Positions 22,186 to 26,877 of a DNA stretch of 64,000 bases are shown piece by piece (positions within the stretch are counted from its first letter, which is position 1; every line of letters begins with the position of its first letter). Under the pieces are notes generated by a model. That model was given only the letters and a program-made list of their open reading frames with translations, ran no database searches and was not told where the DNA came from. This DNA comes from Salipiger pallidus (lineage in GTDB: Bacteria; Pseudomonadota; Alphaproteobacteria; Rhodobacterales; Rhodobacteraceae). Location: assembly GCF_014643635.1 (NCBI RefSeq), contig NZ_BMJV01000001.1:806001-870000 (forward strand). The letters are read 5' to 3'. The position numbers were made by a program, and so were the translations under genes.

Positions 22186-22300
22186 GGATGCCTCCGGCGG
22201 GGATATTTAGGGTCAAAGGAAACATGGCGCTCCTCGCTTCCTTTGACCTTCAAATATCCCGGGGGAGTCCGCCGACGGCGGGCGGGGGCAGCGCCCCCTC
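22186..22300. repeat. Dispersed intergenic palindromic repeat, copy B
   Basis: Left half: GGATGCCTCCGGCGGGGATATTT then GGTCAAAGGAA (22211-22221). Right half, inverted: TTCCTTTGACC (22238-22248), then AAATATCCCGG and a GGGGGCAGCGCCCCC hairpin. The stem letters differ from copy A but the pairing is kept. The right half overlaps the last 50 bases of the UdgX fusion gene. Confidence 0.78.
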
Positions 22301-23731
22301 ACCACGCAGCAGCGCCGCTGCGGTGGCGAGGTCGCTTTCAAACAACTGTTCCGCATCAGGACGCGCCTCCTGCGGCAATCGCAGCAGGTAGGATGGATGG
22401 GTCGTGACAACCACAAGGATACCACTATACGTCTGTTCGACCCTGCCACGGCGGGAAGCAACGGCGCGGCCGTCACCGGTGAGACTTTCCAGCGCGGTGG
22501 CCCCCATCGCGACGATGAGGTCCGGCTTCACGAGATCGATCTCGCGCTCGAGCCACCAGCGGCAGTGAGAGATCTCGCCACCGTTCGGCCTCTGGTGCAG
22601 GCGGCGTTTGCCGCGGGGAGTGAACTTGAAGTGCTTTACCGCATTCGTCACCCAGGCCTGTTCCCGACCAAGTCCTGCACGGGCGGAAACCTTGTCAAAG
22701 AGCTGCCCCGCGGGCCCGACGAAGGGGCGGCCCGCAAGATCCTCCTGGTCCCCCGGCTGTTCGCCGACGATCATCAGGCGCGCCTCGCGCGGGCCCTCGC
22801 CCGCCACCGCCTGCGTGGCATTGCACCACAGCGGGCATCGGCGGCAGGCGGCAAGCTCCGCTGCGAGGGCCTCGGGGCTGTCGGCCTCCGGCAGGGGCAC
22901 ATCCGCCCGCGCCTTCTGCAGTCGTGTCGTGATCGGCGCGGCGCGGCGGGGCGGCAGCGTGGGGGCGGCCTCGGCCATTGCCTGCGCGTGGGCCTGTGCC
23001 CCGGCGATGAGGCCCGGGATGAGGGAGGCTTCGGGCAGGTTCTTCCAGTATTTGCGGGGCATCTCGGACTGCATGGCCTGCGGCTTCAGGCGCGCCGGAT
23101 TAAAGATGTTGCGGAAATAGGTGCGCCAGAGGTCCTCGGCCCCGTCCTGCGGCAGGTCGGGGCGCGGTTCGGGGGGATGCAGGCTCAGCGTACCGCCCTC
23201 AAAGCGAGCCGACAGGTCGGGGGTGAAGATCGCCCAGTCCATGTCCCCGAAGCGGTTCGTGAAGAAGGGGGATACCGGCTCGAGGATGAAATGCGACGGC
23301 TCGAACCAAGCGGCAAAGCTGCGGCGCGGCGCGTCCTTCGCGCCGATCTCGCGGAAGCGCAGGAAGGCCGTCATCTTGTGGCGGTCGCGGCTGACCTCTT
23401 TGGCCATGCGCTCGAGCCGGTCCACCCGCGCATCCCCCCGGTCGCGCAGCAACGTCCTGTTGCCCTGCAAGGCCCAGAGCAGGCCATAGGCGCGGGCGAA
23501 GCGTTCGGGATCGCGGTGCCAAATCACCTTGCGTACCAGATCCACATAGGTGCGCGGCACGGTGACCGGCGCGGCAGTCGGGGGCGGAGCGCCCTCGGCA
23601 AAAAGATCCGCACCCACCTCGCCGTGATGCCACAGCACCTCCTCGGGTGGGAGGCCCGCGGCCAGCAAACCCCGGGCCGCATCGCGAAACGCCTCCCACG
23701 TGCCGATCTTCGGCAGGACCACGCTGCGCAT
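22250..23731 (-). CDS. UdgX-type uracil-DNA glycosylase fused to a TIGR03915-like domain
   Basis: A 493-residue two-part protein. The N-terminal half (about residues 1-255) has RYxxRF-like aromatic and basic segments such as KYWKNLPEASLIP and matches my memory of TIGR03915, a putative DNA metabolism family. The C-terminal half is family 4 UDG-like. It has a cysteine pair in CRRCPLWC, GEQPGDQED, and the UdgX R-loop KRRLHQRP with His379, the residue that forms a covalent bond with abasic DNA in mycobacterial UdgX, and it ends with HPSYLLR. It starts at ATG 23731, overlapping the stop of the radical SAM gene. The last 16 or so residues are encoded by a dispersed repeat. Confidence 0.88.
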   Translation of the reverse strand: MRSVVLPKIGTWEAFRDAARGLLAAGLPPEEVLWHHGEVGADLFAEGAPPPTAAPVTVPRTYVDLVRKVIWHRDPERFARAYGLLWALQGNRTLLRDRGDARVDRLERMAKEVSRDRHKMTAFLRFREIGAKDAPRRSFAAWFEPSHFILEPVSPFFTNRFGDMDWAIFTPDLSARFEGGTLSLHPPEPRPDLPQDGAEDLWRTYFRNIFNPARLKPQAMQSEMPRKYWKNLPEASLIPGLIAGAQAHAQAMAEAAPTLPPRRAAPITTRLQKARADVPLPEADSPEALAAELAACRRCPLWCNATQAVAGEGPREARLMIVGEQPGDQEDLAGRPFVGPAGQLFDKVSARAGLGREQAWVTNAVKHFKFTPRGKRRLHQRPNGGEISHCRWWLEREIDLVKPDLIVAMGATALESLTGDGRAVASRRGRVEQTYSGILVVVTTHPSYLLRLPQEARPDAEQLFESDLATAAALLRGEGALPPPAVGGLPRDI

Positions 23732-24963
23732 CAAATCAGCTGAAGCTGCTCGGGGGGCGGCGCGAAACGGGCACGCAGGTCCTGCACCTCGAGATGCCGG
23801 GGTCGCCAGTCAAGGCAGGTGAGGAAGTCCTTGCCCTGCTTGAGGTTCACGCCCATGCGCCGCAGATCCTCGTAACGCAGGGCGCGGTTCCGCCGGGCGC
23901 TCAGGATCCGGCCGACGCTCTTGGTGCCGACCCCGGGGATGCGCAACAGCAACTCGCGGTCCGCGCGGTTCACGTCCACCGGGAAGCGGTGGCGATTGGC
24001 CAGCGCCCAGGCGAGCTTGGGGTCGATGTCGAGATCGAGATGCCCGCCCTTGGTGGCCGAAGCGATCTCGGGCAACTCGAAACCATAGAAGCGCAAAAGC
24101 CAGTCCGCCTGGTAGAGGCGGTGTTCGCGCATCAAGGGAGGGCGGATTAGCGGCAGCGTAGAAGAGGCGTCGGGGATGGGCGAGAACGCCGAATAATACA
24201 CCCGCCGCAGCCCATAGCTGGAATAGAGCCGGGTCGAGGTGCCGAGGATCGTGGTGTCGTCCGCGCCGTCAGCGCCCACGATCATCTGCGTCGACTGGCC
24301 CGCAGGGGCAAAGCGCGGCGGGCGCTTCCCGGTGTGCGAACGCTCCTTGCGCTCTTCTCGCTTGAGGCGCACGTCGGCCATGGCGCGGCGGATCTGGTCG
24401 GGGGACTTTTCCGGCGCGTATTGCCCCACGGCGGCGTCGGTGGGCAGTTCGATGTTGATCGAAAGCCGGTCGGCGTAAAGCCCCGCCTGCTCGATCAGCG
24501 CGGGATCGGCGTCGGGGATGGTCTTGAGGTGGATATACCCCCTGAAGTGATGCTCCTCTCGCAGGGATTTTGCGATGCGCACCATGTCGGCCATGGTGTC
24601 GTCGGGCGACCGAATGATGCCCGAGGACAGGAACAGCCCCTCGATGTAGTTACGCCGGTAGAACTCGAGCGTGAGGCTCACGACCTCTTCGGGCGAGAAC
24701 CGGGCGCGCGTGGTGTTCGAGCTCACCCGGTTCACGCAATAGGCGCAATCGTAGATGCAGAAATTGGTCATCAGGATCTTGAGCAGGCTGATGCAGCGCC
24801 CATCGGGCGTGTAGGCGTGGCAGATCCCCGAGCCGGTGTTGGACCCGAGGCCGACTCCATCGCGGGAATCCCGCTTCTGCCCTCCGCTGGAAGCGCAGGA
24901 GGCGTCGTATTTTGCCGCATCGGAGAGGATCGCGAGCTTCTGCTCAAGGGTGTGACGTGCCAT
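23731..24963 (-). CDS. Putative DNA modification/repair radical SAM protein (TIGR03916-like)
   Basis: A 410-residue radical SAM enzyme with the cluster motif C69-IYD-C73-AY-C76. Extra cysteines lie at 23, 48 and 57. Toward the C-terminus is a helix-hairpin-helix DNA-binding motif (RIPGVGTKSVGRIL). This architecture is the putative DNA-acting family TIGR03916, whose reaction is unknown. It is the first gene of a two-gene operon with the UdgX fusion and overlaps it by one base triplet (TGATG), which implies balanced synthesis. I chose ATG 24963 because the protein then begins MARHTLEQKLAILSDAAKYD, as relatives do. Confidence 0.88.
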   Translation of the reverse strand: MARHTLEQKLAILSDAAKYDASCASSGGQKRDSRDGVGLGSNTGSGICHAYTPDGRCISLLKILMTNFCIYDCAYCVNRVSSNTTRARFSPEEVVSLTLEFYRRNYIEGLFLSSGIIRSPDDTMADMVRIAKSLREEHHFRGYIHLKTIPDADPALIEQAGLYADRLSINIELPTDAAVGQYAPEKSPDQIRRAMADVRLKREERKERSHTGKRPPRFAPAGQSTQMIVGADGADDTTILGTSTRLYSSYGLRRVYYSAFSPIPDASSTLPLIRPPLMREHRLYQADWLLRFYGFELPEIASATKGGHLDLDIDPKLAWALANRHRFPVDVNRADRELLLRIPGVGTKSVGRILSARRNRALRYEDLRRMGVNLKQGKDFLTCLDWRPRHLEVQDLRARFAPPPEQLQLI

Positions 24964-25054
24964 GTGTTCATGGTACGTTCCAAACCCCATGCCCGCAAGA
25001 GGTGACGCAGCGCACGGCACTCACGTCTTCGCGCGCGGCTCGGACATGAGCGGC

Positions 25055-25098: not shown

Positions 25099-26877
25099 TC
25101 AGAGCGGCCAGATCAGCGGGATCAGCAGCGCCGCGAGGATGCCGGTGGTGATGTTCAGCGGAACGCCCACCTTGAGGAAGTCCGAGAACCGGTAGCCCCC
25201 CGGCCCGTAGACCAGCGTGTTGGTCTGGTAGCCGATGGGCGTCGCAAAACTGCATGAGGCGGCCACCATGACCGCCACCACCAGCGGGCGCGGATCCACC
25301 CCGATGGCGTCCCCGAGGCTGATGGCGATGGGGGTCACCACCACCGCCACGGCATTGTTGCTTACCGTTTCGGTCAGCACCGAGGTCAGCAGGAACACCG
25401 CCCAGACCAGCAACGGCCCCGGCAGATTTTCAAGCAGCGGCGCGATGACGCCCACGATCATCTCGACAGCTCCCGAGCTTTCGAGCGCCGCGCCGATGGC
25501 GAGCATGGCGAAGATCAGTGCCAGAAGCTGGCCTTCCACGAAGGAGAACGCCTCGTCCGCGTCGATGCAGCGGGCCAGCAGCACCACCGCCACGGCCACC
25601 ACCGCCAGCGCGAGGATGGGGGCCACCCCCAGCGCCGACAGCGCCACGATTCCCGCCATGGCCCCGATGGCCACCGGCGCATGGCCGCGCCGGAAGGCCC
25701 GGGCCGAAGGGTGGGACACGTCGACCATATCCATGTCGTCCGACAGGCGCTTGATATCCTCGGGGGCGCCTTCCAGCAGCAGCGTGTCGCCCACGCGCAC
25801 CACCAGGTCATCAAGTTTGCGCCCGATGTTCTGGTTCCGCCGGTGCACCGCAAGCTGGTAGACGCCGTAGCGCCGCCGCAGCCGCAACGCGCCCAGCGAG
25901 CGGCCCACCATCTTGCACCCGGGGGTGATCAGCACTTCCACGGTCGTGGTTTCGCGCGCCGAGATCTGGTCAACCCGCTTGAGGGACTTGTTGCGCTGCA
26001 AGCCCAGAAGCTCGGTCATCTGGGTGCGCAACACCACCCGGTCCCCGACCTCGAGCACCACGCCCGTCAGGTTCCGGCGCAACGATTCGTCCCCCCGCAC
26101 CACGTCGATGAGCCGCACGCCCTCGCGCTTGAACAACTGCACCCCCAGCACTTCCCGCCCCACGAGGTTGCTTTCCGGCGGGACCACAGCTTCGGTAAAG
26201 AACTTCATGCGCGAGCGGTCGGTAAGCATGCCGGCCATGGAATGCCGTTCGGGCAACAGGAACCGCCCGGCCACGATCAGGTAAAGCATCCCCCAGGCCA
26301 CCAGGATGACTGCCAGCGGCGTCACCTCGAAGATCGAGAACGGCTCGAGCCCGCTGCTGCGCGACACGCCATCCACAAGCAGGTTCGTCGAGGTGCCAAT
26401 CAGCGTGGTCGTCCCCCCGAGGATCGCGGCATAGCTCAGCGGAATCAACAACTTGGAGGGCTGCACCCCGAGCGTCTGAGAAATCTGCACGAAGATCGGC
26501 AACATCATCACCACCACCGGGGTGTTGTTCATGAAGGCCGACGCGATGATCACCACGACCATGATGAGCGCGATGGCGCTGCGGGGCCTGAGCCTCACCT
26601 GCCGTTGCGCGAAATGGGCGAAGGCGTCAAGCGCGCCGGTGCGCACCATCGCGCCCATGACGATGAACATCGCCGCGATGGTCCATGGCGCCGGGTTCGA
26701 CAGCACCCCGAGCGCCGCGTCATAGGGAAGCACCCCCATGACAAGCAGGAAGGCCACGCCCCCTATGGCGACCACCTCGGTGGGGTATCGCTCCTGCAGG
26801 AACAGAACAAACATGGCCACAACAGTGGCCATGGTCACGTAAGCCTGCGCCACCTGGCTCAGCTCGATAAATTGCAT
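25099..26877 (-). CDS. SLC13 family anion permease with TrkA-C (RCK_C) domains
   Basis: A 592-residue membrane protein. Two hydrophobic blocks, about residues 10-200 and 395-590, flank a soluble central part with two RCK_C-like domains (about residues 205-380). Examples are EVLGVQLFKREGVRLIDVVR and RSLGALRLRRRYGVYQLAV. This layout is that of the divalent anion:Na+ symporter family, including sulfate and dicarboxylate transporters of the SAC1/YfbS kind. SNNAVAVVVTPIAISLG near the C-terminus is the family signature. Substrate is not determinable; sulfate is a common guess for this domain order. It is a single gene. Confidence 0.9.
   Translation of the reverse strand: MQFIELSQVAQAYVTMATVVAMFVLFLQERYPTEVVAIGGVAFLLVMGVLPYDAALGVLSNPAPWTIAAMFIVMGAMVRTGALDAFAHFAQRQVRLRPRSAIALIMVVVIIASAFMNNTPVVVMMLPIFVQISQTLGVQPSKLLIPLSYAAILGGTTTLIGTSTNLLVDGVSRSSGLEPFSIFEVTPLAVILVAWGMLYLIVAGRFLLPERHSMAGMLTDRSRMKFFTEAVVPPESNLVGREVLGVQLFKREGVRLIDVVRGDESLRRNLTGVVLEVGDRVVLRTQMTELLGLQRNKSLKRVDQISARETTTVEVLITPGCKMVGRSLGALRLRRRYGVYQLAVHRRNQNIGRKLDDLVVRVGDTLLLEGAPEDIKRLSDDMDMVDVSHPSARAFRRGHAPVAIGAMAGIVALSALGVAPILALAVVAVAVVLLARCIDADEAFSFVEGQLLALIFAMLAIGAALESSGAVEMIVGVIAPLLENLPGPLLVWAVFLLTSVLTETVSNNAVAVVVTPIAISLGDAIGVDPRPLVVAVMVAASCSFATPIGYQTNTLVYGPGGYRFSDFLKVGVPLNITTGILAALLIPLIWPL

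What the first reader, a model, noticed from the sequence alone, without database searches (positions are those of the whole stretch)
22250..24963. Two-gene DNA-repair-like operon: radical SAM/HhH protein plus a UdgX fusion
A radical SAM enzyme with a helix-hairpin-helix DNA-binding motif is coupled by TGATG to a fusion of a TIGR03915-like domain with a UdgX glycosylase that keeps the covalent His (His379, KRRLH). The pairing implies a pathway that removes or changes a DNA base, with UdgX trapping the uracil site. The radical SAM substrate and the role of the first domain are unknown.
Basis: partly seen in the sequence, partly recalled or inferred. Interest (0 to 1): 0.65.

Follow-up and report, generated by a model that had tools for sequence, protein, structure and literature searches.

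The report
SOS-controlled radical SAM / UdgX repair operon
Two overlapping bacterial genes, probably switched on by the DNA-damage alarm, encode an uncharacterised radical enzyme and its constant partner, here fused to a protein type known to lock onto uracil in DNA; the gene family is already catalogued but what it repairs is still unknown.

Summary
Window 24963-23731 (-) encodes a radical SAM protein (TIGR03916, 581.7 bits). It overlaps by one base (TGATG) with 23731-22250 (-), a fusion of TIGR03915/DUF4130 and TIGR03914/UdgX that keeps the KRRLH histidine, His379.

The pairing is in NCBIfam's names, and SOS control of a related operon is in print. I add four things. (1) The constant partner of the radical SAM protein is DUF4130, not UdgX: of 299 genomes, 53 carry the radical SAM gene; all 53 carry DUF4130 and 40 carry UdgX. 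(2) A LexA-type box lies 2 nt before the start codon. 108 of 110 alphaproteobacterial loci have one; 8 of 13 beta/gamma loci carry CTGTN8ACAG instead. (3) Genomes that lost the radical SAM gene, or all but DUF4130 or UdgX, can keep such a box. (4) 75 of 76 UDG halves keep the covalent His; one is dead.

Best reading: an SOS-induced DNA-lesion module with a radical SAM/DUF4130 core and UdgX as an optional uracil/AP-site trap. Lesion and chemistry are unknown. New member of a known kind.

The parts
24966..24980 (.). LexA (SOS) box of the alphaproteobacterial type, GTTCN7GTTC (GTTCATGGTACGTTC), 2 nt before the radical SAM start codon
   Evidence: Seen. Same motif class upstream in 108 of 110 alphaproteobacterial radical SAM loci against 133 of 5544 control stretches. 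The same genome has it before lexA and recA. By count alone it is not significant in the window (3 found, 1.53 expected).
23731..24963 (-). Radical SAM protein, 410 aa, TIGR03916 family
   Evidence: AlphaFold2 mean pLDDT 84.5; best solved folds LipA, HydE, MqnE (Z 16.2-16.8) and BioB (Z 15.6).
24736..24759 (-). CX3CX2C radical SAM cluster motif (residues 69-76, CIYDCAYC)
   Evidence: Invariant in alignments A1 (14 rows) and A3 (54 rows) and in the 132 ORFs that span this region.
24793..24897 (-). Span of three further conserved cysteines C23, C48, C57 upstream of the radical SAM motif (candidate auxiliary cluster; inferred)
   Evidence: All three in 131 of 132 ORFs that span this region, including Fusobacterium, two Clostridia and three Bacteroidota; the exception (L097) is an ORF that does not align at C23. 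Residues 27-58 are mostly below pLDDT 50 in the model, so cluster binding is untested.
23887..23979 (-). Helix-hairpin-helix region (about residues 329-359)
   Evidence: Pfam HHH_5/HHH_3/HHH below cut-off; profile matches to ComEA and RuvA, E 0.02-0.09.
23729..23733 (-). TGATG stop/start overlap between the two genes
   Evidence: Sequence.
22250..23731 (-). Fusion protein, 493 aa
   Evidence: AlphaFold2 mean pLDDT 88.9, pTM 0.55.
23027..23704 (-). TIGR03915 / DUF4130 half (residues 10-235)
   Evidence: 191.9 bits; invariant in 25 sequences from several phyla: F123 R125 F126 P145 R160 I168 W202 R214 P225 W229 E234; no solved relative by profile, best E 0.22.
22322..23023 (-). UdgX half (residues 237-470, TIGR03914)
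   Evidence: 315.5 bits; Z 30.8 to UdgX 6ajo.
22595..22609 (-). KRRLH loop with the covalent histidine His379
   Evidence: His kept in 75 of 76 UDG halves examined.
22200..22260 (-). Long hairpin at the 3' end of the operon, overlapping the fusion's last codons
   Evidence: Folded as RNA: -36.8 kcal/mol, z -8.05. Role (terminator or mRNA end) inferred.

Best explanation
This is an SOS-induced DNA-damage module. Its core is the radical SAM protein acting together with DUF4130. I propose that the HhH tail and DUF4130 hold damaged DNA and that the radical SAM barrel uses a 5'-deoxyadenosyl radical to act on a lesion (direct reversal or conversion); the three extra N-terminal cysteines may carry an auxiliary iron-sulfur cluster. 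The UdgX half is an optional second tool: it excises uracil and stays covalently on the abasic site through His379, shielding sites left by damage or by error-prone synthesis. Shown here by sequence: domain identities, conserved residues, constant radical SAM/DUF4130 pairing in the genomes sampled, SOS boxes, optional and separable UdgX. Inferred: LexA binding and induction at this locus, DNA as substrate of the radical SAM enzyme, auxiliary cluster, role of DUF4130, the lesion, and covalent activity of this particular UdgX half.
For: Pairing: radical SAM 53, DUF4130 56, both 53 of 299 genomes. UdgX in 40 of 53 radical SAM genomes. SOS box in 108 of 110 alphaproteobacterial loci against 2.4% of control stretches; CTGTN8ACAG in 8 of 13 beta/gamma loci. 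Same motif class before lexA, recA, uvrA, a uvrD/pcrA helicase and a PA0069-type radical SAM gene in this genome. Four genomes that lost parts keep a box. SOS control of a UDG/COG4277 operon already reported (PMC8565304 passages). UdgX active site intact in 75 of 76. Fold matches.
Against: No substrate or activity is shown for the radical SAM enzyme or DUF4130, here or in the papers my searches reached. The HhH is below Pfam cut-offs in this protein. The best fold matches of the barrel are cofactor-biosynthesis enzymes, not DNA enzymes, so a non-DNA substrate is not excluded. The auxiliary cluster region is not modelled with confidence. None of 21 loci outside Alphaproteobacteria has the GTTCN7GTTC box, and 13 of these 21 have neither that nor CTGTN8ACAG, so SOS control is not shown for all of the family. 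Four UdgX-only loci show no box in the stretch read. DUF4130 without radical SAM survives in 3 genomes, so DUF4130 may have a role of its own.
Confidence: 0.5

Rival explanations
1. One linear pathway: the radical SAM/DUF4130 pair changes a DNA base into a uracil-like or labile base and the UdgX half captures the resulting site.
For: Gene fusion and translational coupling; UdgX over cut-off strongly associated with the radical SAM gene, 40 of 53 genomes with it against 12 of 246 without.
Against: 13 of 53 radical SAM genomes lack UdgX and 10 of 52 UdgX genomes have neither partner over cut-off; the annotated loci read from Bacteroidota, Clostridia and Acinetobacter are unfused; dead UDG half in L123; the fused/unfused state needs 7 changes on a quick radical SAM tree.
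Confidence: 0.15
2. A DNA-modification system: the radical SAM enzyme with DUF4130 installs a modified base (for example thiolated), as the 'modification' in the NCBIfam name allows.
For: Family name; fold rows that include sulphur-inserting and methylating radical SAM enzymes such as LipA, BioB and RlmN; three conserved extra cysteines.
Against: A damage-type promoter box argues against a standing modification; no match to defence-system models at E up to 0.01. In the 9 annotated neighbourhoods read no partner gene besides DUF4130 or the fusion recurs by product name; toxin-antitoxin genes of three different kinds lie near the operon on 3 of the plasmids.
Confidence: 0.12
3. The radical SAM enzyme acts on protein or RNA, for example on its partner, and the DNA link is only through regulation and the UdgX half.
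For: Closest folds are cofactor, peptide and RNA enzymes; HhH call is weak.
Against: ComEA/RuvA-type HhH similarity in the family profile; pairing with UdgX, a uracil-DNA protein; SOS-type boxes in alpha-, beta- and gammaproteobacteria.
Confidence: 0.13
4. A spore-photoproduct-lyase-like direct-reversal enzyme for thymine lesions, as 'SplB-like radical SAM photolyase' in PMC3765255 suggests.
For: [quoted passage not shown] SOS box.
Against: Spore photoproduct lyase is not among the 50 Foldseek or 50 VIA rows shown nor among the 11 NCBIfam models that hit P0002 at E up to 10; these lists do not exclude it. This genome has a separate PA0069-type radical SAM gene behind its own GAAC box, which I take from memory to be the COG1533/SplB type.
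Confidence: 0.1

Closest known systems
NCBIfam TIGR03916 / TIGR03915 / TIGR03914 set (putative DNA modification/repair radical SAM, putative DNA repair, UdgX)
   Same: All three models over cut-off in two overlapping genes.
   Different: Nothing essential found; an ordinary member with the UdgX fusion.
SOS-regulated COG1573-COG4277 operon (Sanchez-Osuna 2021, PMC8565304; Verrucomicrobia and Caulobacter reports cited there)
   Same: UDG gene plus COG4277 gene under LexA control; I equate COG4277 with this radical SAM/HhH protein from memory.
   Different: The passages seen treat it as a uracil-DNA glycosylase repair system; here the constant partner is DUF4130 and UdgX is optional.
Mycobacterium smegmatis UdgX
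   Same: 47-48% identity over about 195 residues, Z 30.8; GEQPG, KRRxH and HPS motifs.
   Different: The solved protein is a single UDG domain of about 210 residues; here it is fused to DUF4130. 7 of 76 UDG halves lack the cysteine pattern (columns 296, 299, 390) of the others.
LipA / HydE / MqnE / BioB radical SAM barrels
   Same: Best solved folds: LipA 16.8, HydE 16.3, MqnE 16.2 (tied) and BioB 15.6, rmsd about 3, over 212-224 residues.
   Different: Low identity, 11-18% in those rows; TIGR03916 adds an HhH tail and C23-X24-C48-X8-C57, not the LipA CX4CX5C spacing (recalled).
Spore photoproduct lyase (SplB)
   Same: Radical SAM and DNA repair; SplB is SOS-linked in PMC8565304 (passage).
   Different: Not among the best fold or family rows shown; membership not shown and not excluded.

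Membership tests
TIGR03916 radical SAM | Score over the curated cut-off, near full length | tested here: met
   581.7 bits against 343.5, profile 1-394 of 415
TIGR03916 radical SAM | CX3CX2C cluster motif | tested here: met
   Residues 69-76, conserved
TIGR03916 radical SAM | C-terminal HhH DNA-binding motif | tested here: inconclusive
   Below Pfam cut-off; ComEA/RuvA at E 0.02-0.09 by profile
TIGR03916 radical SAM | SAM cleavage and DNA substrate | not testable with these tools
   Biochemistry needed
TIGR03915 / DUF4130 | Score over curated cut-off | tested here: met
   191.9 against 112.25; Pfam 126 against 27
UdgX | TIGR03914 over cut-off and UdgX fold | tested here: met
   315.5 against 189.95; Z 30.8, rmsd 1.3, 193 residues
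UdgX | R-loop KRRxH with the covalent His, and GEQPG motif A | tested here: met
   KRRLH with His379, and E324-Q325-P326-G327; His kept in 75 of 76 UDG halves
UdgX | Covalent uracil-DNA adduct | not testable with these tools
   Not tested
LexA/SOS regulon | LexA-type box near the start codon, conserved in relatives | tested here: met
LexA/SOS regulon | LexA binding and damage induction at this locus | not testable with these tools
   Not tested; reported for related operons (PMC8565304 passages)
Spore photoproduct lyase | SPL family and fold match | tested here: inconclusive
   Not listed among the rows shown, which does not exclude it
Lipoyl synthase | CX4CX5C auxiliary-cluster motif (recalled) | tested here: not met
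   Extra conserved cysteines are C23, C48, C57

The most novel reading that the evidence does not exclude
The radical SAM protein and DUF4130 form one enzyme, a radical-based DNA-lesion repair enzyme distinct from spore photoproduct lyase and photolyases, with an N-terminal three-cysteine auxiliary cluster and a DUF4130 lesion-holding subunit. It is present from Clostridia and Fusobacteria to Proteobacteria. Proteobacteria later bolted UdgX onto it so that SOS-time uracils and abasic sites are shielded by a covalent protein cap from the same operon.
Probability: 0.3. Interest if true: 0.8.

Novelty: new member of a known kind. Interest (0 to 1): 0.4.

Why it matters
UdgX is used as a uracil-DNA tool, yet its precise physiological role is described as largely unknown (PMC10359453 passage). 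This survey places the fused form behind SOS boxes, shows that it can outlive its partners behind such a box, and shows that the part no radical SAM genome in the sample lacks is DUF4130, for which I found only a predicted function in print. That points experiments at the radical SAM/DUF4130 pair, testable in harmless bacteria such as Caulobacter, as a possible radical-based DNA repair enzyme.

Tried and rejected
A DUF4130 profile against solved sequences gave only E 0.22 and worse, with tryptophan dioxygenases on top, taken as chance. Spore photoproduct lyase does not appear in the rows; this does not exclude kinship. Anti-phage role: no PADLOC match at E up to 0.01.

Phage origin: 10 hits in the phage records are 8 unannotated faecal 'Bacteriophage sp.' contigs and 2 Acinetobacter records of 240 kb; of these I fetched one faecal contig without annotation and one Acinetobacter record, which has glyS and glyQ near the operon. 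I took them as probably bacterial DNA. Viral contigs gave 2 loci, one of them a fragment.

A third operon partner: none recurs by product name in the 9 annotated neighbourhoods read (searches had no annotation); 3 of them hold toxin-antitoxin genes, each of another kind. Genes between the two in two sphingomonad genomes include hemerythrin, beta-helix and diheme cytochrome genes, and TnpB in Azospirillum. Sampling whole genomes of other phyla was not possible, so cross-phylum statements rest on plasmid and phage records, some of which are megabase-sized and probably mislabelled chromosomes.

First counts replaced: the box count (98 of 115) and the cross-phylum alignment kept only loci that matched a motif containing C23; one search repeats both without that filter (154 distinct ORFs; 22 lacked the N-terminus and 1 had too little upstream sequence, dropped for the box count). 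The fused/unfused tree is a quick tree on the motif-filtered loci with noisy labels: L018, whose reading frame is broken between the halves, was left out, and L123 was counted as unfused although it has a dead UDG half.

Papers: no biochemical test of TIGR03916 or TIGR03915 showed up in searches of the open library (listings and passages only). Not held: da Rocha 2008, Erill 2016, Price 2018. Price 2018 was looked up because I recalled, unsourced, that fitness screens may touch this family. PMC10776899, PMC13384398 and PMC12907096 held none of the relevant terms in the passages asked for.
Full report
What is there. On the minus strand, 24963-23731 encodes a 410-aa radical SAM protein and 23731-22250 a 493-aa fusion; stop and start share a base in TGATG. 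NCBIfam places the first in TIGR03916 (581.7 bits, cut-off 343.5) and the second in TIGR03915 (191.9, cut-off 112.25) plus TIGR03914, the UdgX model (315.5, cut-off 189.95). Pfam gives Radical_SAM, DUF4130 and UDG, with three HhH models under their cut-offs. The genome holds three further UDG-superfamily genes.

Is it known. Yes in outline. NCBIfam's names already link the families. [quoted passage not shown] PMC8565304 (passages seen) reports an SOS-regulated COG1573-COG4277 two-gene operon in Bacteroidetes and cites Verrucomicrobia and Caulobacter precedents, whose papers are not held. That COG4277 is this radical SAM/HhH family is from memory. Searches of the open library showed no biochemical test of the radical SAM protein or DUF4130.

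Who needs whom. In 299 genomes drawn from the window's phylum, 53 have TIGR03916 over its cut-off (13 more genomes with weaker matches were dropped), 56 have TIGR03915 over its cut-off (one weaker, G071, dropped) and 52 have TIGR03914 over its cut-off (175 further genomes have only weaker TIGR03914 matches, dropped as likely other UDGs). All 53 radical SAM genomes have DUF4130; 3 genomes have DUF4130 without radical SAM (G200, G217, G287); 40 of 53 radical SAM genomes have UdgX; 10 UdgX genomes have neither partner over cut-off. Species are not independent, so the Fisher values are only descriptive. The annotated loci read from outside Alphaproteobacteria split: Spirosoma, Parabacteroides, Bacteroides, Pusillibacter and Acinetobacter have an unfused partner gene, Caballeronia has the UdgX fusion. 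On a quick tree of 114 radical SAM proteins the fused or unfused state needs 7 changes among 107 labelled rows. The constant unit in this sample is therefore radical SAM plus DUF4130.

SOS control. GTTCATGGTACGTTC lies at 24966-24980, 2 nt before the radical SAM ATG. Three such sites occur in the window where 1.53 are expected, so the evidence is position and conservation. Scanning 250 nt upstream of the codon aligned to residue D15, 108 of 110 alphaproteobacterial loci have GTTCN7GTTC or its complement (misses L105 and L121; the viral contig L175, which groups with sphingomonads, is counted here), and 0 of 21 loci from other groups or of unassigned origin do. Control: 133 of 5544 stretches of 250 nt from such loci, true sites included. 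A Clostridial locus (L184) has two GAACN4GTTC sites at -218 and -189, which I note without weight. In the window's own genome the same motif class precedes lexA, recA, uvrA, a uvrD/pcrA helicase and a PA0069-family radical SAM gene. The narrower pattern GAACNTN5GAAC has 23 matches in the whole genome against 21 for its backward control, so single hits without gene context mean little.

Natural dissections. Three genomes of one genus (g23, which groups with named Bradyrhizobium) have DUF4130 without radical SAM. In G217 and G200 the fusion has the box GTTCATGATATGTTC some 150-220 nt upstream, the same box that precedes the radical SAM gene in related genomes; in G287 DUF4130 alone (about residues 1-221) has GTTCATGGTATGTTC upstream; in G071 radical SAM and most of DUF4130 are gone and the UdgX frame follows GAACATACCATGAAC. 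No radical SAM remnant was found by tblastn at E 1e-3 in these four stretches. G200's contig begins about 1.2 kb upstream of the fusion, so its radical SAM absence is less sure. Four other UdgX-only loci (L075, L077, L085, L091) show no box in the stretch read. So a remaining piece can be kept behind an SOS box without the others, but this is not the rule for UdgX alone.

Active sites. Among 83 loci scanned, 82 gave an ORF related to the fusion; with P0001, 76 rows have a UDG half and 7 do not or are cut off. His379, the motif A glutamate and the motif B HP are each kept in 75 of 76. The exception, L123 from Acetobacter nitrogenifigens, has lost all three. Seven of 76 lack the three-cysteine pattern of the iron-sulfur site; six of these seven were read clearly and one, L110, may be an alignment slip. 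In the radical SAM protein, C23, C48 and C57 besides CX3CX2C are all present in 131 of 132 ORFs that span the region, including loci of Fusobacterium, two Clostridia and three Bacteroidota; the exception, L097, does not align at C23. This suggests but does not show an auxiliary cluster. The predicted barrel is closest to lipoyl synthase, HydE and MqnE (Z 16.8, 16.3 and 16.2, tied), then BioB (15.6). DUF4130 has no solved relative by sequence, and its fold could not be searched alone.

How it most likely works. DNA damage inactivates LexA and the operon is expressed. The radical SAM protein, guided by its HhH tail and DUF4130, acts on a DNA lesion by 5'-deoxyadenosyl radical chemistry; UdgX, where present, excises uracil and caps the abasic site covalently. 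The regulation is supported by sequence here and by published work on related operons; the UdgX chemistry is described for M. smegmatis UdgX (PMC10359453 passage) and inferred here from conserved residues; the radical SAM/DUF4130 chemistry is inference. The data speak against an obligate hand-over from radical SAM to UdgX.

Verdict. A real, ordinary member of a catalogued but functionally open system. The useful additions are the constant presence of DUF4130, the clade-matched LexA-type boxes, the deletion derivatives that keep a box, and the dead UDG half. On re-checking I replaced two motif-filtered counts by unfiltered ones; the odds did not need to change.

Noticed in passing
window 22200-22260: Very stable hairpin (-36.8 kcal/mol, z -8.05) at the end of the fusion gene, overlapping its stop region, before the YebC/PmpR gene.
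   Followed up: partly
L123 6852-8360: Acetobacter nitrogenifigens fusion whose UDG half has lost the motif A glutamate, the covalent His and HPS, next to a radical SAM gene with an open frame.
   Followed up: partly
L104, L106, L109, L111, L160, L186 fusion genes: Fused UdgX halves that lack the iron-sulfur cysteine pattern but keep the KRRxH histidine.
   Followed up: partly
L192 1729-2322; L193 2800-5042: In two sphingomonad genomes unrelated-looking genes lie between radical SAM and fusion, including a hemerythrin-domain protein, a beta-helix protein and a diheme cytochrome.
   Followed up: partly
L200 406-1488: A second radical SAM gene of this genome, PA0069 family, starts 12 nt after a GAACN7GAAC site, possibly another SOS gene.
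   Followed up: partly
L186 6246-7388: TnpB-family gene, on the other strand, between the radical SAM and UdgX fusion genes on an Azospirillum plasmid.
   Followed up: no
Plasmid records, 158 hits: The radical SAM gene is frequent on plasmids of Roseobacter-group bacteria (58 Phaeobacter records), on one Leisingera plasmid beside repABC.
   Followed up: no
window 25099-26877: CitMHS/DASS-type transporter with TrkA-C domains upstream of the operon on the same strand; no sign seen that it belongs to it.
   Followed up: no
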